Below are positions 44,666-63,578 of a stretch of 64,000 nt of DNA, in pieces. The position numbers and the translations under genes were made by a program. Positions within the stretch are counted from its first letter, which is position 1. Each line of letters starts with the position of its first letter. The stretch is from Fervidobacterium gondwanense DSM 13020 (GTDB lineage Bacteria > Thermotogota > Thermotogae > Thermotogales > Fervidobacteriaceae). The notes under the pieces were generated by a model. It searched no databases and was not told where the DNA came from. It was given only the letters and a program-made list of their open reading frames with translations. The stretch spans positions 1 through 64,000 of the forward strand of contig NZ_FRDJ01000010.1 in assembly GCF_900143265.1 (NCBI RefSeq), given 5' to 3'.

Positions 44666-44694
44666 TTGACAAAAGTCGGTGAAGAGATTAAAAT
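44666..44694 (+). promoter_or_regulatory. Promoter of the GNAT gene
   Basis: TTGACA (44666-44671), 17-bp spacer, TAAAAT (44689-44694); the CDS begins about 60 bp downstream. Divergent from mutS. Confidence 0.85.
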
Positions 44695-44754
44695 TTACAT
44701 CAATATTTTAACATTTTTTCCAAAACATAGTAAGGGGGAATAGGAGGGAATACT

Positions 44755-45288: not shown

Positions 45289-45290
45289 AA

Positions 45291-45314
45291 GAAGGGAGCT
45301 TAAACGCTCCCTTC
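45291..45314. terminator. Bidirectional terminator between GNAT gene and tsaB
   Basis: 9-bp stem (GAAGGGAGC / GCTCCCTTC) with a 6-nt loop between convergent genes; it overlaps the tsaB stop region. Confidence 0.85.
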
Positions 45315-45971
45315 CTTCTTCCTCTTCTCAAAATTAAGTTCAGCGATGCTCTTTTGCAGATACAAAGGCTCAATATCGTTTACAAATCGCTCATTTTCAA
45401 TTTCTTCGCATGCCAAAAGATACAAATTCCTTGCTGTAGGCAAACTCAATTCACTCAACTCGAACTTATTCAACTTAACATCGCTCTCGAAAAACTCCGC
45501 CCCATCGCCAAGGAAAAGCTTTGGGCTGAATTCTCGATATCGTTCATTTATCAAATCAACCGTTTCTATGAACGGTGACACAATCTCATCAAGCTTCCCA
45601 TTCTCCGGCTTATACAGAGCACTGTACAAATACCCTTCCCTTGCCTTTCTAACAACAGCGATGTATCCATTATAGAACAGCCCATTCAGCGCTATCAGTT
45701 TCAACGAACTAATCTGAACAAACTTATTGCCAATTCCAAGCCCGTAGGCAAACGAAATCCCAACACGCAGCCCCGTAAGCCCACCAGGACCTATACCGAT
45801 TCCGACTATATTCAGATTGCCAAAATCTACCTCAGCCATCTTTTCAACAACCTGCGAAACCTGAATCCCGTGCTTTGCCTTTGTCTCGAGCTCAACAAAA
45901 ATCTTCTTTTCATCGTCCACATAACACGCAACAACTCTTGGTGTTGATGTATCCAAAGCGAAAAGTTTCAA
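45300..45971 (-). CDS. tsaB: tRNA threonylcarbamoyladenosine biosynthesis protein TsaB
   Basis: 223 residues. Partner of TsaD in making t6A37 on ANN-decoding tRNAs. ASKHA-fold features: FALDTSTPRVVACY at the N-terminus and GIGIGPGGLTGLRVGISFAYGL near residue 57 (the second is a 22-residue block; key residues GPGG and TGLR). Length typical of TsaB. Monocistronic here. Confidence 0.92.
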   Translation of the reverse strand: MKLFALDTSTPRVVACYVDDEKKIFVELETKAKHGIQVSQVVEKMAEVDFGNLNIVGIGIGPGGLTGLRVGISFAYGLGIGNKFVQISSLKLIALNGLFYNGYIAVVRKAREGYLYSALYKPENGKLDEIVSPFIETVDLINERYREFSPKLFLGDGAEFFESDVKLNKFELSELSLPTARNLYLLACEEIENERFVNDIEPLYLQKSIAELNFEKRKKEGSV

Positions 45972-46045
45972 ATTAACGCCTCCTTGTCAAAGTATCATCA
46001 AGAAGAATTTTAGCACGAATTAAAAAAATTTGAATTCGAAAACTG

Positions 46046-46076
46046 TTGAAATTTTTTAAATATCGTATGTTAAAAT
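46046..46076 (+). promoter_or_regulatory. Promoter of the glycerate transport/kinase operon
   Basis: TTGAAA (46046-46051), 19-bp spacer, TAAAAT (46071-46076) preceded by TATGT. The -10 region (TATGTTAAAATAT) matches that of the liv promoter. Confidence 0.6.
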
Positions 46077-46110
46077 ATCCATAACCACACTTCTACAAGG
46101 GGGGAAGGGT

Positions 46111-47454
46111 ATGAGTATCTGGCTACCTATTTTGCTGCTGCTCTCGATAGTCTTCATCGTCTACTCAACAGTTCGATGGAAGCTGCATCCATTTTTAGCA
46201 CTGATCTTTGCGGCATTCTTGTACGGCTTACTTGCAAAGATGAACTTGGGAGACATCGTTAAATCCATCACTGAAGGTTTTGGTGATACAGTCAGCTCGA
46301 TAGGGATAGTCATAGTTGCAGGAACGATCATAGGCATCTTCCTTGAAAAATCAGGTGGAGCATTTACCATGGCAGAATCGGTTCTCAAAGTAACAGGAAG
46401 AAAGAACGTCCCGCTTGCCATGAGCCTCATAGGTTACATAGTTTCCATACCGGTTTTCTGCGATTCGGGATTCGTCATTCTAACACCACTGAACAAAGCA
46501 TTGACGAAAAGAGCCAACCTTTCTCTTGCCACCACAGGAATCGCTTTGAGTTTAGGTCTTTACGCAACACACACCATGGTTCCACCAACTCCCGGTCCAG
46601 TTGCGGCTGCAGGTAACCTCGGCGCAGATCTTGGATTAACCATACTTATGGGAATGATAGTAGCCGTTCCCGCAATTATCGTTGGTTGGCTATTTGCAAC
46701 AAAGTATGCGTCGAAAATACAGATTGACCCAGAACCCGAACTGACTGAAAAAGAAATTGAACAGAAAATGAAAGAGGCACCGAAAAGCACAATGGCATTC
46801 CTGCCAATTGTTCTGCCAATAATTCTCATTCTCCTCAAATCAGTATCAGATTTCCCGACAAATCCATTCGGCACTGGCGGATTCAAAAACTTCATCGGCT
46901 TCATCGGTCATCCAGTTACAGCATTGATGATAGGTGTCTTAATCTCCTTCTTACTCCCGAAAAAACTCACAAAAGATATGATTTCAATGGGTGGCTGGGT
47001 TGGACAGGCAGTCACGCAGGCAGGAGTTATAATACTCATAACCGCTGCCGGTGGTGCGTTTGGTAAAGTACTACAAAACTCTGGTGTAGCAAATCTCATT
47101 GGTGAATCTTTATCAAAAGCAAACCTCGGCATGTGGCTTCCATTTATCATTTCAGCTGCAATAAAAACTGCGCAAGGTTCATCAACGGTTGCACTCATCA
47201 CAACATCAGCTCTACTTGCTCCATTGATGGAACCTCTTGGCTTAGTTTCACCAATTGCCAAAGCACTCACGGTTGTGGCAATCGGAGCTGGCTCAATGGT
47301 TGTTTCACACGCTAACGACAGCTACTTCTGGGTTGTCAGCCAACTCTCAAAGATGGACGTTAAAACAGGCTACAAACTCCAAACATTTGGAACACTCCTT
47401 GAAGGCTTAACAGCTGCGGTGACAGTCTGGATAATAAGTCTCTTCGTGATTTAA
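46111..47454 (+). CDS. GntP-family permease, probably glycerate/gluconate
   Basis: 447-residue membrane protein with about 12-14 helices. GntP signatures: FLEKSGGAFTMAESVLKV, IPVFCDSGFVILTPLNKAL (about residues 112-130), THTMVPPTPGPVAAAG. The next gene encodes glycerate 2-kinase, so glycerate is the likeliest substrate, although GntP members also carry gluconate. The family is certain; the substrate is inferred from the neighbour. Confidence 0.88.
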   Translation: MSIWLPILLLLSIVFIVYSTVRWKLHPFLALIFAAFLYGLLAKMNLGDIVKSITEGFGDTVSSIGIVIVAGTIIGIFLEKSGGAFTMAESVLKVTGRKNVPLAMSLIGYIVSIPVFCDSGFVILTPLNKALTKRANLSLATTGIALSLGLYATHTMVPPTPGPVAAAGNLGADLGLTILMGMIVAVPAIIVGWLFATKYASKIQIDPEPELTEKEIEQKMKEAPKSTMAFLPIVLPIILILLKSVSDFPTNPFGTGGFKNFIGFIGHPVTALMIGVLISFLLPKKLTKDMISMGGWVGQAVTQAGVIILITAAGGAFGKVLQNSGVANLIGESLSKANLGMWLPFIISAAIKTAQGSSTVALITTSALLAPLMEPLGLVSPIAKALTVVAIGAGSMVVSHANDSYFWVVSQLSKMDVKTGYKLQTFGTLLEGLTAAVTVWIISLFVI

Positions 47455-47468
47455 TATATAATGAGCAC

Positions 47469-47502
47469 ACATGCTCTGGCTAACCGCCAGAGCATGTTTT
47501 AT
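47469..47502 (+). terminator. Intercistronic hairpin with TAACC loop (glycerate operon)
   Basis: Perfect 12-bp stem (ACATGCTCTGGC / GCCAGAGCATGT) with loop TAACC, followed by TTTTATAA. Located between the permease and the kinase genes; same loop as the liv-operon hairpin. Confidence 0.78.
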
Positions 47503-47534
47503 AACCTCACAAACTTCCAACAGGAGGCGATACA

Positions 47535-48791
47535 ATGCCACAGTTAAAAGAGCACATCAACCAAATCATCTCATACACCCTACATCACATCCTCCCAGAC
47601 AATGCTGTAAGGCAAAAACTTGAAGAACTGAATATTCAGACAGATAAAAGAAGAATTATCGTCGTTGCAATAGGCAAGGCAGCTTGGCGCATGGCAAAAT
47701 CTACAAAAGAAGTACTTGGAGAACGAATCGATAAAGGAATAGTAATTACAAAATACCAGCACTCCGAAGGAGCGATAGAAGGCTTGGAAATATTTGAGGC
47801 GGGACACCCAATCCCTGACGAAAACACATTGATTGCAACAAAAAGAGCGCTTGAACTGACAAGCAATCTCTCAGAAAACGACATCGTACTATTCTTAGTC
47901 TCCGGTGGAGGCTCAGCGCTCTTCGAAGAACTACAAGAAGGTGTAACACTGCAAGACATACAATTCATAACACAGCAGCTTCTCAAAAGTGGAGCGAATA
48001 TCGTTGAGATAAACACAATACGAAAGCATTTGTCAATTGTAAAGGGAGGAAGATATGCCCAGCACGTATATCCTGCAAAAGTAATCACCCTTGTACTCTC
48101 AGATGTACTCGGCGACAGGCTCGACTCCATAGCCTCAGGACCCGCGTATCCCGACTCAACGACAAGCGAAATGGCGCTCCAGATAATAGAAAAATACAAC
48201 ATACCAGTCTCTAATGCGATTTTAAACGCGCTAAAAAACGAAACGCCAAAAGAACTAACGAATGTCGAGACCTACATAATCGGTAGCGTTAAAGTTGCAT
48301 GCGAAAAAGCAATGGAGAAAGCTAAAGAATTGGGCTACAACACGTTGCTTCTAACAACCACATTGGACTGCGAAGCCAAAGAAGCAGGCAGATTCCTAAG
48401 CGCAGTCGCAAAAGAAATAAAACAAAACGACGTTCCGGTGAAAAAACCAGCTGCTGTTATTCTCGGCGGGGAAACCATAGTGCATGTTAAGGGCAACGGC
48501 AAAGGCGGGCGCAACCAAGAACTCGCACTATCATTTGCCTTAGCGATAGAAAGTATCGAAGGCATAGCCTTGTGCAGCTTCGGAACAGACGGCACAGATG
48601 GTCCGACTGATGCAGCAGGAGGAATAGTGGATGGAACGACTGCTTCCAAAACCAGAAACGCCGGTTACAACCCAGAACTAATGCTTGAAAACAACGATTC
48701 ATACAACGCCCTAAGAATCGCTGGTGACCTACTCATAACCGGACCGACGGGAACGAATGTCAATGATTTGATCGTGATGGTGGTGGGATAA
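47535..48791 (+). CDS. Glycerate 2-kinase (MOFRL family)
   Basis: 418 residues. Phosphorylates D-glycerate to 2-phosphoglycerate with ATP, feeding lower glycolysis. Family motifs: VVAIGKAAWRMAKST, FLVSGGGSALFEEL, VLSDVLGDRLDSIASGP in the N-terminal domain, and GGRNQELALSFAL plus FGTDGTDGPTDAAGGIVDG in the C-terminal MOFRL domain. SD CAGGAGG precedes the ATG. Forms an uptake-and-phosphorylation module with the GntP gene. Confidence 0.94.
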   Translation: MPQLKEHINQIISYTLHHILPDNAVRQKLEELNIQTDKRRIIVVAIGKAAWRMAKSTKEVLGERIDKGIVITKYQHSEGAIEGLEIFEAGHPIPDENTLIATKRALELTSNLSENDIVLFLVSGGGSALFEELQEGVTLQDIQFITQQLLKSGANIVEINTIRKHLSIVKGGRYAQHVYPAKVITLVLSDVLGDRLDSIASGPAYPDSTTSEMALQIIEKYNIPVSNAILNALKNETPKELTNVETYIIGSVKVACEKAMEKAKELGYNTLLLTTTLDCEAKEAGRFLSAVAKEIKQNDVPVKKPAAVILGGETIVHVKGNGKGGRNQELALSFALAIESIEGIALCSFGTDGTDGPTDAAGGIVDGTTASKTRNAGYNPELMLENNDSYNALRIAGDLLITGPTGTNVNDLIVMVVG

Positions 48792-49049
48792 GAGATTGGA
48801 GCTGTTCAAGATATGAATGGTTTTCCTCAACCTCCCTCTAGAATATGCAACACCTTTCTTACGGTAAGCTTTCTTTCCTATTATATTAGTCAATTATTTA
48901 CCAAATGTTTATACTGAAGAAACCAATTCCATAACTTACTTAAAAGAACAAGAAGAGTATGCAATGTTAACAATTCTCTCTGTGTAAGCGCAAGAGGAGG
49001 TCACTGTGATTAGAAATGGTCATGATTAATTAACACTGACATATTGTAA
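48792..49049. other. Intergenic boundary of the defence island
   Basis: About 330 bp AT-rich gap up to brxP in all. It contains a strong SD (AGAGGAGG, 48993-49000) followed by GTG 49006 and only seven codons (MIRNGHD, stop at 49027-49029), either a leader peptide or the stump of a lost gene. Nothing else recognised. Confidence 0.4.
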
Positions 49050-49079
49050 TTGTTACTATTTGATGGTAAAACATAAAAT
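49050..49079 (+). promoter_or_regulatory. Promoter of the BREX-like operon
   Basis: TTGTTA (49050-49055), 18-bp spacer, TAAAAT (49074-49079), about 40 bp before the brxP start. It is the only convincing promoter before the four-gene operon. Confidence 0.6.
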
Positions 49080-49119
49080 AACGAATCCATAGAGAAATTA
49101 AAGCGAGGAGGGTTTCGGC

Positions 49120-51477
49120 TTGCACAAAGTTTTCTGGGACTCAGAATCAAGTGGTGTGATTCTAAGCTATGACAATCTTGGTATTGAGATAAATGAGCCG
49201 CCAAGACCTGTATTCTATGAGGAATTAGATCTGCTAGGATTTGATAAGCTTTGGTCATATCCGAGAACGCATGAGCCTCTTCTATGGGCGTCCGGAAGGA
49301 ACTATTACTATAAAGGTCGCCTTGTAGCTCGAGCGGTTGGAGGAAGTATGAATTCATTGCCAAAGATTGAGCTGACAGACTTAGGTAGAGATCTCAAGCT
49401 TGACCCAATCAACATTCAGCTCCTTGTTGAAAAGAACAAAGATGCCTTGTTTACAATAGAGAACGAGGCAATGGATTTTGTAACTCATGTCTACAAAGTA
49501 TACAAGAAAAAGAGTTCATTTGTTGTTTCCTACAGTGGTGGAAAGGATTCACAAGTAGTCCTAGATCTCGTGACAAGAGTGATACCACCTGACGAGTTAA
49601 CTGTGATTTTTTCTGATACGACAATGGACATATCTTACACGCACGAAGCATATGAAAAAACAAAGCAAGAATACCAAAAAAGATACGACGGGTTAAAATT
49701 TTACAAGGTTGAACCAAATAAAGCAGCTGTCGAATTTTGGAAAGATTTCGGTCCACCAAGTAGATTGCAGAGATGGTGTTGTACAGTCATAAAAAGCTCG
49801 CCAGCGATAAGTTTTATGAGAAAACAGTTCGGGAGAAAGTCTGTAGTAAATTTTGTTGGGGTTCGTTCTGATGAGAGCACGCAAAGAGAGAAACACAGAA
49901 GATTAAGCGAAGGTGAAAAACACGCTTTTCAGATTAATGCAGAGGTGATTAAGGATTGGAATACAACTGAAGTTTTTCTTTATATGCTTTATAGGAAAAT
50001 ATACATCAATAAGGGATATAGATACGGACTGACTAGGATTGGATGCTCAGTGTGTCCCTTTAATTCGGTTTGGTCTGAAAGTTTGCTGCGCAGAATAGAG
50101 TCTGATATATATGAGCCCTATATTATCGTATTGAAAGAATTCCTGTTAGACCAAGGTGTAGAGCCTGAGAAATTAGACGAATATATTTATGATGGTGCTT
50201 GGAAAAAACGCGCTGGGAGCGAAAGTTCAGAAAAGCGCGAAAATCACCTGGAAATATTGGAGGAAAACGAAAAACTGATAGCTGTTATAAGAAATCCAAA
50301 ACAAGACTTCCTTGAATGGGTAAAAGTTGTAGGTCAGGTGGCTTATTTTAAGAATGCAAATAATGTGGTTAAAGGAGACGTAAGAGTAAGGGAACGAAAC
50401 ATACCATTCGAGATGGAATTAAAGGATAACAAGACAATCATTAGAGTCACAACTTACGGGGATAAGAATATTCAAAGCACTTTCAAAAACTTATTCAATA
50501 AGACGACCTACTGTGTAGGTTGTGGAACGTGTGGAGCAGAATGTCCAGTAGGAGCTTTAACATTCTTTCCTTCACTAAAGGTAAACGCCAATCTCTGCAT
50601 TCATTGCGGCAACTGCGTTAATGTATCAGAGAAGGGCTGTTTAGTTGCAAAATCTTTACAGACAGCACAGGGGGGAAGAAACATGAATAATGACAGATTG
50701 TTGAAAGGATTTGGAAGGTATCTGACGTTTGGTATGCGTGATGAGTGGTTATCTGCTTACTTGAAGAACGTAAATAAATGGTTTGAAGAAAATACTTTAG
50801 GACCAAAACAAGTAGAAAGCATGAAGGCGTGGCTTATGGACTCTGGCTTAATAGATAGTAAAAAGAAACCCACGGAGCTAGCAGAGATTCTTAGCAGGAT
50901 ATATCCGTATGATAAGAATTTTGTTTGGCTAATTTTGTGGAACAATTTGTATTATACTTCGTCTGTTTGCAAAGTTTATGTGGATAATGTTGAATGGGGA
51001 GCATACATAAGTTCAAAGGATTTTGAAGATATGGTTTCATCAATAGATCCTGAACTAAATGACAGGACGAAGAAAAGCGGTATTGGCTCGTTATTAAACA
51101 TGTTTGAAAATTCTCCATTAAGCAAAGAAATCGGGATAGGTCAAATCAAAAAGAACGGAAACCAAAGATTCGTTTCTAAGAAACCTTTTGAAGAACCACA
51201 TCCGTTTGCTGTTGCCTACAGCCTCTATAAAGCTGCAGAGTATTTAGGATATAGGGATTTGACTGTCTCTGAGGTGTATGATTCGAGATTCGATGGAGGA
51301 CCGTATAAGCTATTTGGTATTCCAAGGTCAAAACTTGAGAGAGTGTTAAGAAGACTTCAAGAAGATCCAGAGAGGATATTGAAAATAGATTTGGTTTCGG
51401 ATTTAGACAACATATTCTTGAGGGATGATTTGGACTCACTGCAAATACTTAGAATTGCGGAGGCGAGGATTAAATGA
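49120..51477 (+). CDS. brxP: BrxP-like protein: PAPS-reductase/DndC-like domain + ferredoxin + DUF4007
   Basis: 785 residues. A PP-loop ATP-pyrophosphatase/PAPS-reductase domain has YSGGKDSQVV (138-147), WCCTVIKSS (219-227) and IGCSVCPF (308-315). A ferredoxin-like part has CVGCGTCGAEC (465-475) and CIHCGNC (493-499) plus C507. From about residue 522 comes a DUF4007-like helical domain. PP-loop plus Fe-S chemistry is shared with DndC, which puts sulfur on the DNA backbone, so a sulfur-based DNA mark is a reasonable inference. TTG 49120 follows SD GAGGAGGG. First gene of the operon; overlaps brxC by 4 bp. An internal SD and ATG precede the DUF4007 part. Confidence 0.8.
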   Translation: MHKVFWDSESSGVILSYDNLGIEINEPPRPVFYEELDLLGFDKLWSYPRTHEPLLWASGRNYYYKGRLVARAVGGSMNSLPKIELTDLGRDLKLDPINIQLLVEKNKDALFTIENEAMDFVTHVYKVYKKKSSFVVSYSGGKDSQVVLDLVTRVIPPDELTVIFSDTTMDISYTHEAYEKTKQEYQKRYDGLKFYKVEPNKAAVEFWKDFGPPSRLQRWCCTVIKSSPAISFMRKQFGRKSVVNFVGVRSDESTQREKHRRLSEGEKHAFQINAEVIKDWNTTEVFLYMLYRKIYINKGYRYGLTRIGCSVCPFNSVWSESLLRRIESDIYEPYIIVLKEFLLDQGVEPEKLDEYIYDGAWKKRAGSESSEKRENHLEILEENEKLIAVIRNPKQDFLEWVKVVGQVAYFKNANNVVKGDVRVRERNIPFEMELKDNKTIIRVTTYGDKNIQSTFKNLFNKTTYCVGCGTCGAECPVGALTFFPSLKVNANLCIHCGNCVNVSEKGCLVAKSLQTAQGGRNMNNDRLLKGFGRYLTFGMRDEWLSAYLKNVNKWFEENTLGPKQVESMKAWLMDSGLIDSKKKPTELAEILSRIYPYDKNFVWLILWNNLYYTSSVCKVYVDNVEWGAYISSKDFEDMVSSIDPELNDRTKKSGIGSLLNMFENSPLSKEIGIGQIKKNGNQRFVSKKPFEEPHPFAVAYSLYKAAEYLGYRDLTVSEVYDSRFDGGPYKLFGIPRSKLERVLRRLQEDPERILKIDLVSDLDNIFLRDDLDSLQILRIAEARIK

Positions 51478-54400
51478 AGTATTCAGAGATAATAGGTCTG
51501 TACGACTCATTTCACCCGGTATATGATTTAGAGAACGAGTATGACAAAGAGTATTGGAAAATATTTGTTCCAAACAAGAAATTTTACGAAATCTTATCTA
51601 ACGTCATAACGTCTTTTGATGGCTTAGAAAAGGAAAGAAAATCTATATGGATTCAAGGCGCTTATGGTACTGGTAAGAGCCATGCAACAGCTGTCATAAA
51701 GCACCTACTCTGGGATGATCCTAGAGACATCAGGGATTTTGTTGAGAGAATAGAAGATTCTCAGTTCCAAGAAAGAATTAAACACTTTAGAAATGATAGT
51801 AAGGTACTTCCAGTAGTAATTAAGGGTACTTCCGGAATAGATGGTCCGAGAACACTTAGGTACGTGGTTCAAAGGGCCGTAAAAAAGTCTCTGCTCCAGG
51901 TCGGGGATGATGTGGAAATTGAATCGGAATTCGAGCAGGTCATTAATCAGATAGAGAAAGGAATAGTAAGACTAGAAAAACTGATTCAGGAAGCTGATTT
52001 AGCAATATATGGCGATGGCCAGGAGATAATGAAAAAGCTCAGGAATGGCGATACAGAAATCCTGAGGAAAATAGAGAGAGTCCTAGAAAACGAGGGATTA
52101 CACGTTACATACGACAACATAACCGACTGGTTGTCTAAAGTCGTTGAAAAACTCAGAGAGAAAAGAGTGGCTGACTATCTTGCAATATACTGGGATGAAT
52201 TTACCGGTGTCCTTGAGCTTCAGAATGCGGGTTCCATATTAACGGAAATTCAAAGTATTGCCGAGCTCTCGGAGCATGAAGGAGTATATTTATTTATTAT
52301 ATCTCACAGAAAAATAGAACAATTCTCGAAGTTGAGAGATGACATTGGAAAAGTTAGAGATCGATTCAAAGTTATCGAGTACTCAATGGAACCGATAACA
52401 GCTTACCACATTGTCAAAGGGGCTCTTAAAAAGTTAAGACCCCACGATTACGAGATGGTACGAAAAGAGACTTTAAGCCGGGACGTTAAAGATGTTATGG
52501 AAAGCATAGCTGTGCAGGAACAAAAGACCACAAATGCTTCCGAATTATTAGAAACACTTCAGGACGGTTTTCCTATACATCCGTACACAATATACACTGC
52601 GGTTCTTGTAGCAAGATATTTCGGCTCGACAGAGAGGAGCATCTTCAAGTTCTTACATGACGAAGTCCATGGTTTTAAAGGGTTTATAGAGAAGAACCCA
52701 GATGAGGAGGGTGAGTACTTCCTAACTGCTGATAAATTATGGGACTTCTTCTATTCGGACTTTGAAATAAGAGAAGACGATGCCACGTTCGTTATAACAG
52801 AAAGATACAAGCGCTTTAAAAACCAAGTGGAACAGAATGGAGAAGAGTATATTAAGGTTTTCAAGGGAATCTTATTGTTGAATCTATTGTCTAGGTACAT
52901 AGATATTTCCGAGGCACACGAAAACCTATATGCGCCTCATAGGAAAAATATTAAAATGATGTTTGCAGGCTCGATCAAACCGTCGTATATAGATACGATA
53001 CTTGCTTTCTTCGAAGAAAACGAAATCTTTGTAAGAACACAAGACGAAAACTATTTTGTTACTAATTCCTCTCTCAAGCACGAGGAGATAAACAAAGAGA
53101 GGAAACAGTTAGAACCATACTATAACAATGTTAGCAAGATTGTAGAAGAAGTCATTAATAATTTAGACAGTGCCAAGGAAGAGTTGGAGAAACTAGTCCA
53201 GATTGGTACAAGAGAATACAAGTACGTGTTACTTGACGATAGTATGAACGAAAATACAATAAGGTCTAGACTCCTTAGTAAGTTAAAACCGAGCAGCGCA
53301 CTAAATTTTGCCTTAATCTTCGGAACAAACGAATATGCTCTCTCTAGTGTCAAAAATTTGGTTCGAAACCTATCTTTAGAGAAAAATTTTTCTCATATAA
53401 TCTTCTTAGTTTTAGACACGCTTTTCGAAGAGCAAGTCAAAAATGAGTTTATTAAGAATAAGGCAATGGCTAAGGTTGCCGAAAGTCACAGGTTTAATGA
53501 TGAAGCTTTGCTTTATCAGAACAATGCCATCAAGACAATCAAGGATTGGCTCAGTGAAGTAACGAGAGGTTACGTGAACTGGTATCTGAACGGAGCCAGC
53601 GATCGAGTTCCATGTGACAGTCTCGGTGATAAGGTTGGAATACAGCTAACTAACAAGGTGTTTCCGCACGGTTTTGAAACGTTAGAGGAGTTACGCAAAA
53701 ACGACAATGTTTGGACAAGAAGGAATTCTGCTAAGGCGGCAGAACCTTTTATCCTTGCTAAAAACAGAGACGAACTAGTAAGACAACTTGAAGATAAAAA
53801 AGGTATTTACCGTTTTCTTGTCGATATCATAAAAGACAACTCAGGTGAGTATATAGTAAGCAATAATTTAGAAATAAGACCAGATGTTGATAAATCCCAT
53901 CCGTTAGTAGTCTTAAGTGAAGAGGTTGAAAAAGCAATTGAGTTCGAATCCAAAAAAGGAATATTCAATTTGGGAGAAGCGCTAGAGTTTCTCTCAGAAC
54001 CACCATATGGTCTATATCCCTGCGCCGTTTATTTTGCGGCCCTCGCATTCAGCCTGAGAAAGTACGTAGGGAAGCTATATGATCTTGGAAAGAATGGTAA
54101 GGAAGGTCAAATTAATGAGATGCAGATGATTGAGAAAATAGGGCTTATCTTCGACTATTTCAGCGACAGAAAAAGGATAGATAAACTTGAGGTTCGCAAG
54201 GGTACCGAGCAAGAGAAAAAACTCTCTAAGATTTTGGCAGATATATTTGGAATAACCAGTGAAATAACCAGTTCGTTAGTAGGTGGTACCTTCAATGACA
54301 TACGATGGGGATTAAGGGAATGGAGCAAGAAATCTCGTTTTCCAATATGGAGCTTGCGGTATGCAATTGGCAGCGAAGAAGATAAGCTATTAACGGACGC

Positions 54401-54992
54401 AATTGCTTCAATTTGCGAAATCACAGAGTCACGTGAGCAGGATATTGATATCGAGACTTTGAGTAAATGGCTTAAGAATATAGATATGGCAAAATTTGAA
54501 CTGAAAGGAATTATTGACGAAGGTGCAATTAGAACTGGATTTATAAGATTTATAGAAAGACGTGTCCCAGGTATAAGTGGTCAGATAGGAGACATTGAAC
54601 AGCACATAGATGACATTTTAGACTATCTCGGTAGGAAAATGCAAGAAGAAGTAGGTACTTGGGTCGAAGATAAAGTTGAATCGGAAGTGAAGAGCTGGTT
54701 TATTGAAAAACTTAAACGTCACAATGGGCTTTCAGGAAATGTGGGTACAATAGGCGACAATCCTTCAGTGCCTTTGCTTGGCGATAAACCTGATTCCGTG
54801 GGTTACGATGCAGGAAATGGCTCATCAAATAACGAAATAGCAGAAATAAAAGAGCTTATTAACAAAAGCGAAGAGTTGAGGGTAAAGGCAGCTTTGATTA
54901 AGATAGTTGAGATTGCTTCCAATAACATTGAGATTAGGAGGATTGTAAAAGAGGTGCTGCGGGGGAATTTGAATGAGCATTTACGGAGCTAA
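51474..54992 (+). CDS. brxC: BrxC/PglY-like P-loop ATPase
   Basis: 1172 residues, typical of the very large BREX ATPases. Walker A GAYGTGKS (62-69) and a Walker-B-like IYWDEF (D241, E242), with a long helical remainder containing several coiled-coil-like stretches and a C-terminal helical domain. BrxC is an essential BREX component and is proposed to act as an ATP-driven assembly or DNA-linked motor. ATGA coupling to brxP and a 20-bp overlap into pglZ indicate one transcript. Identity rests on size, motifs and gene order. Confidence 0.78.
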   Translation: MKYSEIIGLYDSFHPVYDLENEYDKEYWKIFVPNKKFYEILSNVITSFDGLEKERKSIWIQGAYGTGKSHATAVIKHLLWDDPRDIRDFVERIEDSQFQERIKHFRNDSKVLPVVIKGTSGIDGPRTLRYVVQRAVKKSLLQVGDDVEIESEFEQVINQIEKGIVRLEKLIQEADLAIYGDGQEIMKKLRNGDTEILRKIERVLENEGLHVTYDNITDWLSKVVEKLREKRVADYLAIYWDEFTGVLELQNAGSILTEIQSIAELSEHEGVYLFIISHRKIEQFSKLRDDIGKVRDRFKVIEYSMEPITAYHIVKGALKKLRPHDYEMVRKETLSRDVKDVMESIAVQEQKTTNASELLETLQDGFPIHPYTIYTAVLVARYFGSTERSIFKFLHDEVHGFKGFIEKNPDEEGEYFLTADKLWDFFYSDFEIREDDATFVITERYKRFKNQVEQNGEEYIKVFKGILLLNLLSRYIDISEAHENLYAPHRKNIKMMFAGSIKPSYIDTILAFFEENEIFVRTQDENYFVTNSSLKHEEINKERKQLEPYYNNVSKIVEEVINNLDSAKEELEKLVQIGTREYKYVLLDDSMNENTIRSRLLSKLKPSSALNFALIFGTNEYALSSVKNLVRNLSLEKNFSHIIFLVLDTLFEEQVKNEFIKNKAMAKVAESHRFNDEALLYQNNAIKTIKDWLSEVTRGYVNWYLNGASDRVPCDSLGDKVGIQLTNKVFPHGFETLEELRKNDNVWTRRNSAKAAEPFILAKNRDELVRQLEDKKGIYRFLVDIIKDNSGEYIVSNNLEIRPDVDKSHPLVVLSEEVEKAIEFESKKGIFNLGEALEFLSEPPYGLYPCAVYFAALAFSLRKYVGKLYDLGKNGKEGQINEMQMIEKIGLIFDYFSDRKRIDKLEVRKGTEQEKKLSKILADIFGITSEITSSLVGGTFNDIRWGLREWSKKSRFPIWSLRYAIGSEEDKLLTDAIASICEITESREQDIDIETLSKWLKNIDMAKFELKGIIDEGAIRTGFIRFIERRVPGISGQIGDIEQHIDDILDYLGRKMQEEVGTWVEDKVESEVKSWFIEKLKRHNGLSGNVGTIGDNPSVPLLGDKPDSVGYDAGNGSSNNEIAEIKELINKSEELRVKAALIKIVEIASNNIEIRRIVKEVLRGNLNEHLRS

Positions 54993-57435
54993 ATGGACTG
55001 AAGGAGCTACAGTCGAGTTCGCTTCATACACCGATGTATGTAAACAAATAATCAATGAAACAGATAGGGAAACTTTGTCACACAGGCGATTCCCGTTAAG
55101 ATTTATCTTTTCAAATTCTGCAGAGGACATAAGAAACATCATAAATTCTGTACATTGCGAGCTCGGAGCCCGTGTTTTGAACATTTCCGAAGTCCTAAAT
55201 AATGACGAACAATGGCCAACAAGAGATGAAATCTGTCGTCTCATAAAGAACACAGAGACAGATACTGTTCTTATAGCATTGTCAGAATATCTAAGATTTC
55301 TTAATGATACTGACTTTTCATCCTTTTTGTACGCAATATCTAGTATAGAAAAGCCAAATGTCAGAGTTTTTATCCCAATGTTAGGTTTATGGGAAAGATT
55401 CTATGCACTGTTTTGGAAAGAATTCTACAGGGCGAAAGAATGGGCTCCCGTTTGGAGGATCAGTAGTGCGCCAAACAAGCATACAAAGATATACTGCTTA
55501 CAATTTAACACTGATAACTTAGACAGCAAATTAGAAGGAAGTCTGCCCGGTTGCAAGTTGGTAAAATCAGTATCTGAATGGTTTAGTACATATCTTCAAA
55601 CAGAAGTTGAGAAAATTATCATAGTCTCAAAGGTACTAAACATGCTTTCTAAAAACGCATCTTCGGATAATGCGGTTGACTTTAGATTGCTTCAAGACCA
55701 AAAACAGCTTTTAGAAGAGGTTTATGGATTGGAGGTTCCTATAGATTACAACGAGAACGAGAAAAGGTACTGGACACAGTTATTTCACCTAATAAGTCAA
55801 CAACGTCGTGACTTCTCTAATAGTTTTCTGAAAATTGTGGAATACCATTTTAACGTGCATGACATGAGCTCATTGAGTCTAGGAAAAATTGTAAGGTTAA
55901 TAGAACAGGCGAGTGATTTTGACATTTGGTTGTTAGCAAAGACCTTGCCTAAGGTTAATAAATCTAATGAGTATCTCAATATTTGCCTTTCTTCGCTCGA
56001 TAGCTTCAAACAAGAGAAACTAATATCGAAATTATGGTTTAAGATATTCTCATTCAAAAGCGAACACCTAAGTCAGAAGACCTGTGATGAACGAAGAGAC
56101 ATTCTAAGAGAGATTACGCGAGCTATGTCAGACCCTGAGGAACTAATTCCAGATCTGGAAAAGGAATTGAGTACTTTATTGAACAAATTAGATAAGCGGG
56201 AAGTTATAAAATATCTCACAGGACTGACGAGTTATGAACGAGAACTTATAATTAAACTACTATTAGAGGTTGATAGTAAAGACGGAATTCGAGATGAACT
56301 AATGAAGTTATACCCAGAATTAAAGTACTACATAGACTGGGAAAGCATTAAGTTGAGTATCGATGCTCCAGAATGGATAATAAGGTATTTCACTTTGTAC
56401 AACTTCTCAAAACTTCAAAACAAGAAACACGAAGAAATTGATACGATACTAAATAAGTTTAACCACAATAAGGAGAGTTTCTCGGAATGGTATATTCATT
56501 TAAACCTTGTTCTAAAGTTAATTGAGGACAAGGGAAGAGAAATGTCTTCTGGCACTCTCAGATACATTTGGATAGATGGTTTAGGTGCGGAGTGGCTGCC
56601 ACTAATAGCTAACCTTGTTGAAAAATCGGGGAAAGCAACTATTACCTTTAAGGCTCTCGCACGCGTTTCTCTTCCAAGTACAACAAAATGTAATAGGTAC
56701 GAGTACGAAAAAATAGCTGATTTAGATAATTTTGTACATTCTCAATCATCTTACAAACATCCAGAATGCCTAGTTAAAGAAATAGAGATTATAGAAAAAA
56801 TTGTTGACAAAATTCTTAGATATCCTGAAGAAAGAATCATCGTTGTTTCTGATCACGGCTTTAGCTTTCTTTGCACAAAAGAACATGGAAGCTACAAAGC
56901 ATTCAATTTCGATGCTGAACACGAAGGAAGGGTTATGTTCATGGAGGAAGGCAATGATTACATCGGTGATGAATACTACATGGTTTGGAACATAATGGAT
57001 GGAACGTGCAAGGATATCTACAAGAAGGCTCTGATCGCTTTGAAACACTTATCATTGAACAACAAAGTTCCGTATAGAGAAGTTCATGGCGGTGCAACAC
57101 CCGAAGAGGTTATTGTCCCATTCCTAATTATAGAAAAGAAAAAAGAGTCTGACCATGGTTCCATCAAGAAATTTGAAGTAAAGTTTGATAGTACAGAATT
57201 ATCTTTAAGGAATCCGATCCTGAGGTTTAAAATCATTCCAAAACCTGACAAGGTGGTTGCTAAGATTCAAGGGAAAGAACTTAATGTGGAGGCAAGTTCA
57301 TCACCGAACGAGTTTACAATTAGATTAACCAGTTATTCAACGGGAAAGTACGTACTTAACCTATACATTGACGAAGGAGTGTACGAACAAGAGATTAGCA
57401 TCTACGGAGGCTTTAAGGAAAGGGAATTGTTCTAA
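54973..57435 (+). CDS. pglZ: PglZ-domain protein
   Basis: 820 residues. The C-terminal third is a PglZ alkaline-phosphatase-like domain: YIWIDGLGAEWLP (531-543, metal Asp535), VVSDHGFSF (Asp627, His628) and VHGGATPEEVIVPF (His705), all conserved metal-site positions of the family. The N-terminal ~500 residues are helical and not recognised. PglZ is the defining gene of BREX and Pgl phage-exclusion systems; its biochemical role is not settled. ATG 54973 lies within the brxC end. Confidence 0.88.
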   Translation: MSIYGAKWTEGATVEFASYTDVCKQIINETDRETLSHRRFPLRFIFSNSAEDIRNIINSVHCELGARVLNISEVLNNDEQWPTRDEICRLIKNTETDTVLIALSEYLRFLNDTDFSSFLYAISSIEKPNVRVFIPMLGLWERFYALFWKEFYRAKEWAPVWRISSAPNKHTKIYCLQFNTDNLDSKLEGSLPGCKLVKSVSEWFSTYLQTEVEKIIIVSKVLNMLSKNASSDNAVDFRLLQDQKQLLEEVYGLEVPIDYNENEKRYWTQLFHLISQQRRDFSNSFLKIVEYHFNVHDMSSLSLGKIVRLIEQASDFDIWLLAKTLPKVNKSNEYLNICLSSLDSFKQEKLISKLWFKIFSFKSEHLSQKTCDERRDILREITRAMSDPEELIPDLEKELSTLLNKLDKREVIKYLTGLTSYERELIIKLLLEVDSKDGIRDELMKLYPELKYYIDWESIKLSIDAPEWIIRYFTLYNFSKLQNKKHEEIDTILNKFNHNKESFSEWYIHLNLVLKLIEDKGREMSSGTLRYIWIDGLGAEWLPLIANLVEKSGKATITFKALARVSLPSTTKCNRYEYEKIADLDNFVHSQSSYKHPECLVKEIEIIEKIVDKILRYPEERIIVVSDHGFSFLCTKEHGSYKAFNFDAEHEGRVMFMEEGNDYIGDEYYMVWNIMDGTCKDIYKKALIALKHLSLNNKVPYREVHGGATPEEVIVPFLIIEKKKESDHGSIKKFEVKFDSTELSLRNPILRFKIIPKPDKVVAKIQGKELNVEASSSPNEFTIRLTSYSTGKYVLNLYIDEGVYEQEISIYGGFKERELF

Positions 57436-57461
57436 CAGCTTAGCTTATGGGGGGATTATAC

Positions 57462-58904
57462 GTGGACACTAACTTAAACGAACTTGACGAAAAGATACGT
57501 AGCGTTTTTCCCTATGAGTCTGTGATGAAACAACCGGGCCTTCAACAGGTATTCTCTGGCTATAACCTCCCATCCTTTGTAAAGGACTGGCTTCTCCAAA
57601 AACATACAGAAATTGATGGAAGTATCGATACGGACAGTTTAAAAGACTTTCTGACGAAGCATATTGCTTACAAAGGAAGTAAAATTAAAGGTCAGTTGAT
57701 TAACGATGGCTCACAAGTAACATTGTTGGCAAGAATTATAGTAGAGCCTGATGTAAAGAGTGGAATATTGAGGTTTTCCATACCAGATATCGACATAAAA
57801 TCAAACGAGGCAAGAATCCCTCCACACATTGCTCGCGAACATAGCAGTGAATTATCAGGAGGAGAAACGTGGGGCGTTGTAACTCTTGTATACGTGCCTC
57901 CAGATGGAAGAACTCCTGGAGCAATTGAATTAGCTGATTATAAGCCGTTCAAACCATATGAGGTTGATTTAGATTATTTCCGTGAAAGGAGAAAGGAGTT
58001 TACCTTAGAAGAATGGATAGATCTGCTAATACGTTCCATGGAATATAATCCTAGAGGATTCAGGTCTTTAAGCCAAAAACTTCTATTTATCTCAAGATTG
58101 TTAGTCTTTGTGGAACCCAATCTGAATATGATGGAGCTTGCACCAAAAGGAACTGGTAAATCATATACATATAGCAATCTTACCAAGTACGGTTGGATAA
58201 TAAGCGGTGGAACTGTGACACGAGCCAAATTATTCTATGACATTTCTAAACAAATGCCCGGTATCTTGACGCAATACGATTTTGTTGCGATGGATGAGGT
58301 TGAGACTATCAGATTCTCTGACGAAAGTGAACTTTTGGGTGCTTTGAAGAATTATCTGGAATCTGGACGATTTACAGTGGGGAACTACAACGGAGTTTCA
58401 TCCGCTGGAATGGTACTACTGGGTAACATACCATTATCTCACGATAAAACACCTTTGAGCAGCGACTATCTTGCAACCCTACCTCCATTTTTTAAGAATT
58501 CGGCATTGTTAGACAGATTTCATGGTTTTATCGAAGGTTGGAAACTACCAAGAATGCGTGAAGATATGAAAGTTCGCGGACATGCCTTAAATGTCGAATA
58601 CTTTTCTGAAATCCTGCACGAAATGAGAACAGTTCCTGATTTTGCCGATATATGTAAACGTTTACTTAGGATTCCAGAGAACTCGGATACTCGTGATACA
58701 AAAGCAATCGTCAAGCTGAGCACGGCATATTTGAAATTGTTGTTTTCCCACGTGAGAGACATAACTGACATAAGCAAGGAGGAATTTCAGATGTACTGCC
58801 TAACCCCTGCGAAAGAGATGCGGCAAATAATCAAGCGGCAATTAGCAATGATTGATAGAGAGTTTAGTGAGGAACTACCCAATATAGAGGTCGTTCGTCA
58901 ATGA
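57462..58904 (+). CDS. brxL: BrxL-like AAA+ ATPase, short form without Lon protease domain
   Basis: 480 residues from GTG 57462 (SD GGGGGGA); the ATG at 57447 overlaps the SD. Walker A APKGTGKSYTYSN (about 222-234), Walker B YDFVAMDEVETI, then LLGNIPLSHD and DRFHGFIEGW. It matches the ~450-480 residue BrxL-like family rather than the ~690-residue type 1 BrxL that carries a C-terminal Lon domain; no Ser-Lys protease segment is present. Last gene of the operon. Confidence 0.82.
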   Translation: MDTNLNELDEKIRSVFPYESVMKQPGLQQVFSGYNLPSFVKDWLLQKHTEIDGSIDTDSLKDFLTKHIAYKGSKIKGQLINDGSQVTLLARIIVEPDVKSGILRFSIPDIDIKSNEARIPPHIAREHSSELSGGETWGVVTLVYVPPDGRTPGAIELADYKPFKPYEVDLDYFRERRKEFTLEEWIDLLIRSMEYNPRGFRSLSQKLLFISRLLVFVEPNLNMMELAPKGTGKSYTYSNLTKYGWIISGGTVTRAKLFYDISKQMPGILTQYDFVAMDEVETIRFSDESELLGALKNYLESGRFTVGNYNGVSSAGMVLLGNIPLSHDKTPLSSDYLATLPPFFKNSALLDRFHGFIEGWKLPRMREDMKVRGHALNVEYFSEILHEMRTVPDFADICKRLLRIPENSDTRDTKAIVKLSTAYLKLLFSHVRDITDISKEEFQMYCLTPAKEMRQIIKRQLAMIDREFSEELPNIEVVRQ

Positions 58905-59879
58905 ATCTCTTAGATGATTGTCTTTGAAGAATTTAAGTCGCAATTTTGGACTATCTCCTGAAAGTATGATATGTAAAAAATCGTATTACCTTTTCACATC
59001 TCGCAGCTTTTACTCCATGGAAGTCATGTTTTTAATTTAATTTGATACCTTTTTTCTAATGGAGTACGCCATAACATTAGTTTCTAACCACTAACGGTGT
59101 TTTCCAGTACTTCTTCATTTAGATCCTGATTTAGGTCCTGCGCGAATATTGGACGATTTCTATAAGGCTCTTACCAAAGACATTCAGAAAAGCGAACGTA
59201 TTTATTTTTTCCAAAACTACAATCACAAACGATGCTCGAAAAGACAGAGCAAACGAAAAGTGGTTGAATATCATACTCAGAAAGAAATGAAGAACAACCC
59301 TTGTGTCAACCTTCAACATACAGAATTGCCACCATAAATTTGCAAAAGAAAATAAGAAATGCTATAATGCACGTTAGAGAAATCGCATCCTATCTCTATA
59401 AACGACCTAAAACGTGGAGTTCGAAACACGAAAGTTGCCCGACAATATTTGCTCATATCCGCATCAATACTATACTTTCTGTCATTGACAGGTTACTAAT
59501 TTTTGCCAAGCGAATTTTCAATAAGTCATTTATTCATGCGCTTCTGCGTTGAATTTTAAGTGTTTTGTTTCACAAAGTGTTAATATCATCTTATTTTTTA
59601 TATGTATTCTTCTTGATTTTCAGCTTGTGATTAGACATAATCAAAAAAATTCTCTACCTATTGTTACGATAATATTTCAAAGTGAAAAGCTAACACAACT
59701 CGTTTATTCATCAGCATGCATCAAGAAACAAGCACAAAAACCGGTAGGGAATCAGCATCAGTTCAAGAAAATCTGCGACTGTTAGCCATGCTAAAACAAA
59801 ATTTAGATAGTCTAACTTTGGAGGTAGAGAAAATCGCATTCCAAACTACATCTATTTATGCCTATTCTGGAAGGTAAGA
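58905..59879. other. Gene-poor, decayed stretch between BREX and CRISPR-Cas
   Basis: About 1 kb without a convincing gene. Two fragments read like coding remnants: 59149 onward in the + strand (LDDFYKALTKDIQKSERIYF) with stops around it, and a 53-codon ORF at 59716-59877 (MHQETSTKTGRESASVQENL ... IYAYSGR) that lacks an SD. Neither is recognised. Most likely eroded accessory genes. Confidence 0.45.
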
Positions 59880-60065
59880 GTCAGGAAGGAACCTCTCTCT
59901 GAAAGAGCTGGAAACCAAAAGTTTCAAAACTATTAATAAAAAATTTATTTGTTTTGTCAGGAAGTAACCTCTCTCTGAAAGAGATGATGGGAACCGGACG
60001 TTAAAAATAGCGCAAACGTTGAATTTATCCTTTTGATAGGTATTATCTCTGAAAGTGCTGAATTT
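59880..60065 (+). CRISPR. Short degenerate CRISPR array, 36-nt repeats, next to type III-A genes
   Basis: Three units. Repeat A, 59880-59915, is 36 nt (GTCAGGAAGGAACCTCTC then TCTGAAAGAGCTGGAAAC). Repeat B at 59956-59991 keeps GTCAGGAAG-AACCTCTCTC and the GAAAGAG core but has a damaged 3' end. Repeat C near 60030-60065 keeps only ATCTCTGAAAGTGCTG. The core-to-core periods are 76 and 74 bp, so spacers would be about 40 and 38 nt. The GGAAAC end is typical of type III repeats. It is followed by a terminator and then cas6. Confidence 0.65.
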
Positions 60066-60072
60066 ATAAGCA

Positions 60073-60106
60073 AAAGTGGGACTTTTGTCCCACTTTATTT
60101 TTTTCA
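60073..60106 (+). terminator. Terminator after the short CRISPR array
   Basis: Perfect 10-bp stem (AAAGTGGGAC / GTCCCACTTT) with a TTTT loop, then ATTTTTTTTC. Confidence 0.9.
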
Positions 60107-60117
60107 GAAAAATGATA

Positions 60118-60147
60118 TTGTTTTTCTTTTGTTATATATGATATAAT
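60118..60147 (+). promoter_or_regulatory. Promoter of the cas6-cas10-csm operon
   Basis: TTGTTT (60118-60123), 18-bp spacer, TATAAT (60142-60147), 63 bp before the chosen cas6 start. Confidence 0.72.
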
Positions 60148-60210
60148 AGTAACGTAAATTTGTAACGTGCGGTTACATTAAGAATAATGAATAATAACAG
60201 GAGGGGTAGG

Positions 60211-61002
60211 GTGTTTTACAGTCTTCTGCTCAACGTAAAAGCTGAGAATGATGGTATTATTGAGTATTATCCTGGCCGCAAGATTCATGGTTGGTTCTTT
60301 TCTGTGTTAAGATCTGCAGATGAACGAATTTCGAATGTCATGCATTCTAATATAAGTGATAAATCTTTCACTGTTTCTTCCTTCCTGGGCAAGAACGTAA
60401 GTAGACCTTTAGAAGTTAAACAAGGTGAAGTCTACTCGATTAGGATAACCCTCCTTGAAGATAGCCTTTTCGAGCTTTTCAGCAACAAGGTGTTTGAGTC
60501 CACACTGAAAGACCAGAATGCTCGATTTGGGAATGTAACTTTTAAGGTGCTCAATTTATCCGTGGGACAGTCTAACAAGTGGTCTGGATTTACAACAGAA
60601 GAAGAACTTTTCAATAAGGATAATACGCAAGCTGTTGTCAAACTAAAGTTTTATACACCCACTCTTTTTCGCATCGGGGATTTGCATTTGAGAGAGCCCG
60701 ACCCTGAGAAGGTCTACACAAGCCTTATTAGAAAATTCAACAAATACAGCAAGGTAAAACTCGATGAGAACTTGGTGGGGAAATTTAAGGATATAAAGAT
60801 TTTGGAAAAAGACACAATTCTAAAAAGAGTAAATTTTGGTGAATTCTACTTGCAAGGTTTCGTTGGAACTGTTACGTTCGAAGTGCCGTATGAAGATAAG
60901 CTTGTAGAAGCAGTGAACGTGCTTTCCAACTTTGCGTTCTACTCAGGTGTTGGTTACAAGTCGACAATGGGATTAGGGCAGTGCAAAAGGGAGGAACTCT
61001 GA
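60211..61002 (+). CDS. cas6: CRISPR-associated endoribonuclease Cas6
   Basis: 263 residues from GTG 60211, which follows SD AGGAGGGG (60199-60206); an ATG at 60187 lies before the SD and is unlikely. Cas6 cuts pre-crRNA within repeats. The double-ferredoxin fold ends in the hallmark Gly-rich loop YSGVGYKSTMGLG (244-256), with the N-terminal MFYSLLLNVKAEN strand and a PGRKIHGWFF segment holding a candidate catalytic His. First gene of a type III-A operon. Confidence 0.92.
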   Translation: MFYSLLLNVKAENDGIIEYYPGRKIHGWFFSVLRSADERISNVMHSNISDKSFTVSSFLGKNVSRPLEVKQGEVYSIRITLLEDSLFELFSNKVFESTLKDQNARFGNVTFKVLNLSVGQSNKWSGFTTEEELFNKDNTQAVVKLKFYTPTLFRIGDLHLREPDPEKVYTSLIRKFNKYSKVKLDENLVGKFKDIKILEKDTILKRVNFGEFYLQGFVGTVTFEVPYEDKLVEAVNVLSNFAFYSGVGYKSTMGLGQCKREEL

Positions 61003-61064
61003 CCACTGTCGCAAAATAATATCAAACTTTGGAGGTTACAAATCCATTAGGGGGGCAGATATAT

Positions 61065-63575
61065 ATGGATGCTATAAGTGAAAAACAAAACCTGAAGCAT
61101 ATTTTGTATTTAGCATCTCTGTTCCATGATATAGGGAAATTTAGGCAACGTGGAAAAATGAGTGACGCGTTGAAAAATGGTATCAAAGATGAGTACAAAT
61201 TCCACATTAGTGAGAACAAATCAGGATTGGCTCATCAGTACGTTGGAGCATATGTTTACTCTAAGTCAAAGCTTCCCTACAGAGATACTGTCTCTGCAAT
61301 CATTTCAAGACACCACGAACAGTTATCGAATCTAAACTCAGAACCAGACGTCCTTGTAAAGATAGTAAGTCTTGCGGATAAACTTTCTGCATCAGAAAGA
61401 GAAGACTATACCGCACAACCTGATGCTAAAATCAAATTTATGAGATCCATAATTTCCTCCGTCTCTTTAAATAATGTCGAGAAAGTGAAATTCTACAAAA
61501 AAGTATCGAAATTTTCCGAAGCATTAGAACCTGTTGAGCAAGCCGCAGCAGAGCAAATATCCGTAGAAGATGTGTACGAAAAGCTTTGGAGCTAATTTGA
61601 GAAGTTCATATCTGATGGTGAGCTTGAAAGCAGATGGGGAAAAGAAAATGACCATGATGTACTTGGGAGAATTTATTATTTACTCAAAGAATACACCTCC
61701 AACATTCCTTCCGCATTCTACTACAGTGAACCAGACATATCTCTTTTCTCTCACTCAACCACAACCGCCGCTATAGCCGTCGCTTTATATAAACAATTTG
61801 AAAATGAGCTTTTTGAAAAACAGAACGATAGATTTGTAAAAGCCGCAGAGATTCTCAATAAAAAAGAATCTATTTCTCGAAAATACCGAGAGAATAAAAC
61901 TTCGCAAGCAGACCCGGAGGATGAAGAGATATTCGGTGTTATCAAAGGTGACATATCGGGAATACAAGATTTCATATACAAAACCTCTTGGCGAAACGGT
62001 CTCAAAAAACTTAGAGCCAGATCATTCTTTATCGCCTACCTTTCGGAAATCATAGCCAGATACATCATAGACAAAGAAGGGCTATACCAATCAAACATCC
62101 TTTACTGCGGTGGTGGGCACTTCTACTTGCTTGTTCCTGCAAAAACAATTGATAAGTTGGAAGAATACCAAAAAGATATAGAAGAAAAAATGTACAAAGC
62201 GTTTGGATTAGACTTGGCTGTTCTGCTTGGTGGAATCAAGATAAATATTTACGACCTCATAGAATTCAAAGTCCACGACAAACTGGCAAGAATTCTTGAA
62301 GTAAAGAAAAACAAAAAGTTTGAGAACGTGATAGACCTTGAAATGTTTATTCCTGAAGACTTCTCTGGTCCGAGATGTCCGTACTGCGGAAGAAAAATGC
62401 TGCAAGTTACAAGGAAAGAAGAAGAACAAGAAGAAGCATTTGAATGCGTATTTTGTGAATCTTTTGCTGAACTTGGAAGAAAACTTGCAATCTCGGAATA
62501 TCTCAAAATAGAAAAATGCCCGGAGCTAATTACACCACCAGTAAACGTGTACGAAGTTTTCAAGATGTTCGGTTACGAACTAAAATTCAGCGATAATCCA
62601 GACAAATTTGCCTTTGCAATCGACAAAGCGACATACGATCAAAACAAGGCAATGTACTTTACTAAGATGGCAAGTTACGTGTACAAAAAGGCAGGTAAGT
62701 ACTACGAAACTCCAGCCGACCTCGAGACGATAGCACAAGAAGCTGAGGGACTAAAAAGATGGGGACTGCTCAGGGGAGACGTTGACAATCTTGGAAGAAT
62801 ATTCCAAACACTGCAAGTATCCGATAAAGAAAAAAGAACACCGATATCATTTGTTGCAACACTCTCGTTCGAGCTTGAATCATTCTTCAGCATCGTTCTT
62901 GAAAGGATGGTGGTTGAGAAACACCCAAAATGCAATGTCATATACTCAGGCGGCGACGACTTCATGATACTCGGTCCATGGAGCGAATTACCACTACTTG
63001 CAAGAGATATAACAAATGAATTTAGAAAATACAGCAAAAATGATGAGTTATCGATATCCATGGCAATAGCAGTGGCACCTTCAAGAAAATTCCCGGTCTA
63101 CAAACTTGGAACGCTGGCTGGTGAGTATCTGGACGACAAAGCGAAATCATATAAACGCACGTACAATAACAAAGAATTAGAAAAATCAGCCATCTACATG
63201 TTCGGGGGGTATGTAGGTTGGGAGGAGTTTGATAAGGTCTACAAACTCAACCAGCAACTTGAAGACATTATTTCACAAGGTGTTACAAGGAATATACTGC
63301 ACGTGCTGAGCGCTTTTCTTGAAAAACAGCAAGAAGGTGAACAACCAAAGATTTGGCGGCTATATTATTACGTAGGAAGACTCATGGAAAGGCAGGAAAA
63401 CAGAGAAACAAAAGCTCTGATTCAAAGGTTTTTCAATGAAATACTGGAGGAAGGTAACAGCAGATTATATGATAAATTGGGATTGGTAATTAAGTGGGTT
63501 CACGACAAAACGCGTAAAGTTGAAAGTGATGAAAATGGAAAAGCTTCTCAAAACAGAATGACAACGGAGGTGTAA
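61065..63575 (+). pseudogene. cas10: Cas10/Csm1, interrupted by an in-frame TAA
   Basis: Large subunit of the type III-A effector. Residues 1-176 form the HD nuclease domain (LFHDIGKF, H21-D22; SRHHEQ). Codon 177 is TAA (61593-61595). Reading straight on in the same frame gives 660 more Cas10 codons with no further stop: KGDISGIQDFIY (first Palm, about 294), a Cys zinc site (CPYCGRKM...CVFC) and the cyclase motif YSGGDDF (GGDD 629-632). No ATG, GTG or TTG occurs in that frame between the stop and 62127, so the second part cannot easily start on its own. A point nonsense mutation, a sequence error or readthrough are the options. ATG 61065 follows SD AGGGGGG; an upstream TTG at 61029 is less likely. 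Confidence 0.85.
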
Positions 63576-63578
63576 AGT

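What the first reader, a model, noticed from the sequence alone, without database searches (positions are those of the whole stretch)
49120..58904. Complete type 4 BREX-like operon with a sulfur-chemistry protein in place of a methyltransferase
Four tightly coupled genes encode a PAPS-reductase/ferredoxin/DUF4007 protein, an 1172-aa P-loop ATPase, a PglZ protein and a short BrxL. This matches the published type 4 BREX gene set, which lacks PglX methylase. The DndC-like PP-loop plus Fe-S motifs suggest the self/non-self mark could be a sulfur modification of DNA. No DndD, DndE or Ssp partner is present, so any such modification would work by a different route from Dnd. The gene content is observed; the chemistry is inference.
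Basis: partly seen in the sequence, partly recalled or inferred. Interest (0 to 1): 0.85.

Follow-up and report, generated by a model that had tools for sequence, protein, structure and literature searches.

The report
Known type 4 BREX defence operon
A heat-loving bacterium of the order Thermotogales carries an intact four-gene anti-phage system (BREX type 4) of a kind already described and already reported to mark the cell's own DNA with sulfur, so the find is real but ordinary.

Summary
Window 49120-58904 (+) carries four overlapping or nearly abutting genes that match type 4 BREX profiles over almost their whole length: BrxP (887 bits), BrxC (838), PglZ (NCBIfam 'BREX-4 system phosphatase PglZ', 664 against a cut-off of 140) and short BrxL (720). 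Catalytic motifs are intact. The order brxP-brxC-pglZ-brxL recurs in most of 80 loci fetched from bacteria and archaea, so this is an ordinary member. BrxP is not a sulfate-assimilation reductase: the CysH profile scores 38 bits against 165, and the catalytic ECGxH motif is absent from 77 of 77 homologues. A confident model (pLDDT 91) joins a PAPS-reductase-like PP-loop domain to a domain that matches crystal structures of SspB, a phosphorothioation protein. BrxC also matches SspC. The sulfur chemistry is not open either: recent papers name brxPCZL (BREX type 4) as a DNA phosphorothioation system. What is new is only this thermophile copy, absent from 8 other genomes of its genus.

The parts
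49120..51477 (+). brxP: PP-loop/PAPS-reductase-like domain (SGGKDS 139-144; Cys220, 221, 309, 312), eight-Cys ferredoxin domain (465-507), SspB-like DUF4007 domain (about 530-785)
51474..54992 (+). brxC: 1172-aa P-loop ATPase (GAYGTGKS, WDEF), SspC homologue
54973..57435 (+). pglZ: BREX-4 PglZ; alkaline-phosphatase-superfamily residues D535, T571, D585, H589, D627, H628, H705 conserved in 62-63 of 63 homologues
57447..58904 (+). brxL: 485-aa AAA+ ATPase without the C-terminal Lon-like domain, as described for type 4
   Evidence: PMC12839542
49105..49112 (+). ribosome-binding site (GAGGAGGG) ahead of the brxP TTG start; an in-frame stop at 49099 rules out a longer BrxP

Best explanation
This is a standard, apparently functional BREX type 4 operon (brxPCZL) that a Thermotogales bacterium probably gained by horizontal transfer. 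Most likely working: the SspB-like domain of BrxP binds DNA and BrxC acts as the ATP-driven scaffold; the PP-loop domain activates a backbone phosphate with ATP; the cluster held by Cys220/309/312 (and Cys221) passes on sulfur that comes from a cysteine desulfurase, here probably chromosomal SufS; the result is a phosphorothioate self mark. PglZ (nuclease/phosphatase) and BrxL (DNA-bound AAA+ ATPase) then act against invading DNA. Shown here: family membership, gene order, intact catalytic motifs, domain homologies, absence of DndC and DndD. Reported by others for the family: phosphorothioate formation by BREX-4. Inferred: each mechanistic step in this organism, SufS as donor, and the ferredoxin domain as electron or cluster supplier.
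For: Profiles. Same four-gene order in most of 80 named loci and in a Methanosphaera plasmid. All 77 BrxP keep the PP-loop lysine and aspartate, Cys220/309/312 and all eight ferredoxin Cys. The RWC and GCxxC motifs line up with a true DndC from the same bacterial family; in E. coli DndC the matching Cys146, 280, 283 bind the 4Fe-4S cluster next to a predicted DNA-reading loop (PMC12193691). Model pLDDT 90.7 with PDB matches to PAPS/APS reductases, to the [4Fe-4S] thiolases TtuA and NcsA, and to SspB. An Ssp-type operon on a Treponema plasmid pairs a BrxP-like stretch with SspB-, SspC- and SspA-like proteins. Complete SufC-B-D-S-U operon in the same genome. Literature: PMC11931770, PMC12839542, PMC12707154, PMC13326643.
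Against: No modification or phage data exist for this organism. BrxP lacks the DndC-specific extra cysteines (also noted in PMC12839542). The SspB-like domain has no invariant acidic or histidine residue (best is D763, in 65 of 77), so the strand nicking reported for SspB may not apply. No desulfurase in the operon. The primary paper (Yuan et al.) is not in the library and is known here only through papers that cite it.
Confidence: 0.88

Rival explanations
1. BrxP is a sulfate-assimilation (P)APS reductase that happens to lie beside BREX genes.
For: Pfam PAPS_reduct match (92 bits) and PDB fold matches to CysH/APS reductases; the CC...CxxC pattern resembles APS reductases.
Against: cysH 38 bits against a cut-off of 165, APS_reductase 30 against 235, PADLOC BrxP 887; no ECGxH catalytic motif in 77 of 77 homologues; fused ferredoxin and SspB-like domains; fixed linkage to brxC-pglZ-brxL.
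Confidence: 0.02
2. The operon makes a sulfur mark other than phosphorothioate, for example a thiolated base, as the related PP-loop enzymes TtuA and NcsA do on tRNA.
For: Only three Cys of the PP-loop domain are invariant (C221 is replaced in 5 of 77, all methanogen sequences), as in [4Fe-4S] thiolases; TtuA and NcsA are among the PDB matches.
Against: Published reports assign phosphorothioate to BREX-4 (PMC11931770, PMC12839542); co-homology with SspB, SspC and SspD, which make phosphorothioate.
Confidence: 0.05
3. The operon is a decayed, non-functional remnant.
For: The adjacent Cas10 has an in-frame TAA and the adjacent repeats are degenerate; a relative (G092) has brxP split in two.
Against: All four genes are full length with every conserved catalytic residue kept.
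Confidence: 0.05

Closest known systems
BREX type 4 (brxPCZL)
   Same: All four genes, their order, domain make-up, short BrxL, BrxP fused to DUF4007
   Different: No desulfurase gene beside it (reported in 56% of type 4 loci, PMC12839542); the closest BrxP sequences found are only about 51% identical
SspABCD phosphorothioation module
   Same: Counterparts of SspB, SspC and SspD are present
   Different: SspD- and SspB-like parts are one chain; effectors are PglZ and BrxL, not SspE or SspFGH; no SspA gene in the operon
DndABCDE
   Same: PP-loop enzyme with RWC...GCxxC cluster motifs as in DndC
   Different: No DndC (E 1e-30) or DndD (E 0.001) match in the genome; DndC-only cysteines absent; different ATPase
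PRK13795-type PAPS-reductase/ferredoxin proteins
   Same: Best NCBIfam match to BrxP residues 100-501 (177 bits)
   Different: Far below that family's cut-off (456); the match does not include the SspB-like domain

Membership tests
BREX type 4 | BrxP in place of PglX methylase | tested here: met
   PDLC02510 887 bits over 1-779; no methylase among the ORFs examined
BREX type 4 | Type-4-specific PglZ | tested here: met
   NF033445 664 bits against cut-off 140
BREX type 4 | BrxC ATPase with intact Walker motifs | tested here: met
   PDLC02472 838 bits; GAYGTGKS and WDEF
BREX type 4 | Short BrxL without Lon or HKD C-terminal domain | tested here: met
   485 aa, profile covers 11-483
BREX type 4 | Cysteine desulfurase in the locus (optional: 56% of loci in PMC12839542) | tested here: not met
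   None in the operon; SufS elsewhere in the genome. Not a defining feature
BREX type 4 | DNA phosphorothioate and phage restriction | not testable with these tools
   Needs LC-MS and plaque assays
Ssp | SspB, SspC, SspD counterparts | tested here: met
   SspC 1.3e-27, SspD 1e-11; SspB by profile 2e-5 and fold 4e-6
Ssp | SspE or SspFGH effector beside the module | tested here: not met
   Neighbours are pglZ and brxL, then CRISPR type III genes; SspE and SspFGH were not sought in the rest of the genome
Dnd | DndC and DndD | tested here: not met
   No DndC match in own genome at E 1e-30; no DndD match at E 0.001
CysH sulfate-assimilation reductase | Family profile score and catalytic ECG[ILVM]H motif | tested here: not met
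   38 bits against 165; motif in 0 of 77 BrxP

The most novel reading that the evidence does not exclude
The BrxP cluster works like the non-redox [4Fe-4S] thiolases TtuA and NcsA: three invariant cysteines leave one iron free to bind sulfide, and the fused ferredoxin domain is structural or regulatory. The sulfur route would then differ from the one proposed for DndC, and this thermophile protein could be a tractable enzyme for showing it.
Probability: 0.12. Interest if true: 0.45.

Novelty: new member of a known kind. Interest (0 to 1): 0.17.

Why it matters
It adds a probably thermostable BrxP/BrxC/PglZ/BrxL set from Thermotogales, useful for structural and in vitro work on DNA phosphorothioation, and it supports by fold that BrxP joins SspD- and SspB-like parts in one chain. 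It does not open a new question: gene set, chemistry and Ssp kinship are already published.

Tried and rejected
Single-sequence scan of genome contigs with BrxP found nothing; the alignment query worked. Pfam found no domain in BrxC and only a sub-threshold one in PglZ; Pfam DUF4007 did not report on BrxP. DNA-level search of plasmids gave no match. Rfam gave no RNA family in 44000-64000; promoter-like and terminator-like counts equal chance. The primary BREX-4 phosphorothioate paper is not held. The weak plasmid hits in Stutzerimonas and Polaromonas are lone PAPS-reductase genes with no BREX or Ssp context. An empty site could not be drawn exactly: genus relatives share the left flank up to glyK, but no shared right flank was found.

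Full report
Observation. Profile libraries name all four without ambiguity as BrxP, BrxC, type-4 PglZ and BrxL. This is not chance.

Surroundings. To the left lie what read as housekeeping genes: mutS-like (42161-44638), tsaB-like and gluconate-permease-like (named by my reading of the translations) and a glycerate kinase (47535-48791). To the right lies a type III-A CRISPR locus: Cas6 (60187-61002) and Cas10 from 61029. In the genus relatives fetched, the order up to glycerate kinase is partly or fully kept but other genes follow it. None of 8 other genomes of the genus has a BREX-4 PglZ or a BrxP match, though two of these are incomplete. In the phylum sample of 103 genomes, 6 pass the PglZ cut-off and 6 have a BrxP match, this one included. 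So the operon is a variable insertion after glyK. One relative in the same order (G099) shares its contig length with the MAG 'Thermotogaceae bacterium M2_metabat2_scaf2bin.213' (L051), which places the window's genome in the order Thermotogales, in a family other than that of G099 (inference).

Homologues. An alignment query confirmed 141 relatives in genome contigs and kept 80 named loci. The order brxP-brxC-pglZ-brxL recurs in nearly all that are long enough to show it, from Bacteroidota, Bacillota, Nitrospirota, Thermodesulfobacteriota and Methanobacteriota, and on the Methanosphaera plasmid pNP174. In a tree of 44 BrxP the window's protein sits in a supported group of eight (98/99) with a Thermotogaceae MAG, Archaeoglobi, Methanothermococcus, Methanosphaera and Methanobrevibacter, which fits transfer between bacteria and archaea.

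BrxP anatomy. In 77 full-length sequences the PP-loop residues S139, G141, K142, D143, S144, the cysteines 220, 309, 312 and the eight ferredoxin cysteines are invariant (G140 in 76); C221 is kept in 72 and replaced by T, S or H in five methanogen sequences. A bona fide DndC from another member of the bacterial family (L134, 619 bits) aligns so that its FRWC and RFGCWVC match BrxP QRWC and RIGCSVC, while the DndC-only cysteines lie in an insertion that BrxP lacks. PMC12193691 assigns E. coli DndC Cys146, 273, 280 and 283 to the 4Fe-4S cluster, with a predicted DNA-reading loop that ends at RW just before Cys146; BrxP has GPPSRLQRW-C220 at that place. BrxP is not CysH: scores are far below cut-off and the ECGxH motif is absent.

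Fold. The model of BrxP (44 sequences, pLDDT 90.7, pTM 0.79) matches PAPS/APS reductases, the thiolases TtuA and NcsA, and SspB crystal structures 6lb9 and 6juf (TM by target 0.56-0.60, E 4e-6 to 1e-5). The match table does not print residue ranges, but hhalign against an SspB-type protein from Treponema covers BrxP 560-769 (E 2e-5, probability 77%). That Treponema gene carries the record name 'DUF4007 family protein', scores 153 bits against an SspB profile, and sits beside SspC- and SspA-like genes. BrxP is thus an SspD-like enzyme plus an SspB-like DNA-binding part in one chain. This agrees with PMC12839542, which had already stated the SspB, SspC and SspD homologies, the DUF4007 fold, the ferredoxin region and the missing DndC dyad.

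Sulfur donor. No desulfurase lies in the operon. The genome has a SufC-SufB-SufD-SufS-SufU operon with SufS above its cut-off. Replacement of the dedicated desulfurase by housekeeping enzymes is documented for Dnd and Ssp (PMC8092258, PMC12839542). A more distant relative (G006) has a NifS/DndA-like desulfurase right after brxL.

Effectors. BrxC Walker A (62-69) and B (241-242), PglZ metal-site residues and BrxL Walker A (232-239) and B are intact and conserved. PglZ of type 1 BREX is described as a metal-dependent nuclease (PMC12839542); the same role here is inferred.

Known or new. I file this as a new member of a known kind with low interest.

Noticed in passing
window 61029-63575: Type III-A Cas10 is interrupted by an in-frame TAA at 61593-61595 between its HD part and its palm part; the same frame stays open on both sides, so it may be a recent nonsense change or a split gene.
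   Followed up: partly
window 59880-60060: Three degenerate 31-nt repeats spaced 74-76 nt just upstream of Cas6, possibly the remnant of a CRISPR array.
   Followed up: partly
L053, L054, L055, L057, L059, L069, L072, L074, L077: A second, separate DUF4007 gene lies between brxP and brxC in these type 4 loci, although BrxP already carries a DUF4007 domain.
   Followed up: partly
L030:1451-5371: A 1306-aa protein of unknown kind (only DUF7662 found) directly abuts brxP upstream in genome G006.
   Followed up: partly
L029:5154-7325 and onwards: In G092 brxP is split into two reading frames inside the DUF4007 domain, while the other three genes look intact.
   Followed up: partly
L037:10001-21440: Treponema saccharophilum plasmid pTS1 holds SspB-, SspC- and SspA-like genes with a BrxP-like stretch, followed by helicase, ATPase and phospholipase-D genes: perhaps an Ssp module with different effectors.
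   Followed up: partly
L033:7678-7813 and 11489-11624: A 136-nt direct repeat (97%) lies at the end of the contig, suggesting a mobile element next to the CRISPR locus that broke the assembly.
   Followed up: no
phage records MT835963, MT835511: BrxP-like proteins (29-35% identity, almost full length) occur in records labelled 'Bacteriophage sp.' from faecal samples; they may be phage-borne or mislabelled bacterial contigs.
   Followed up: no
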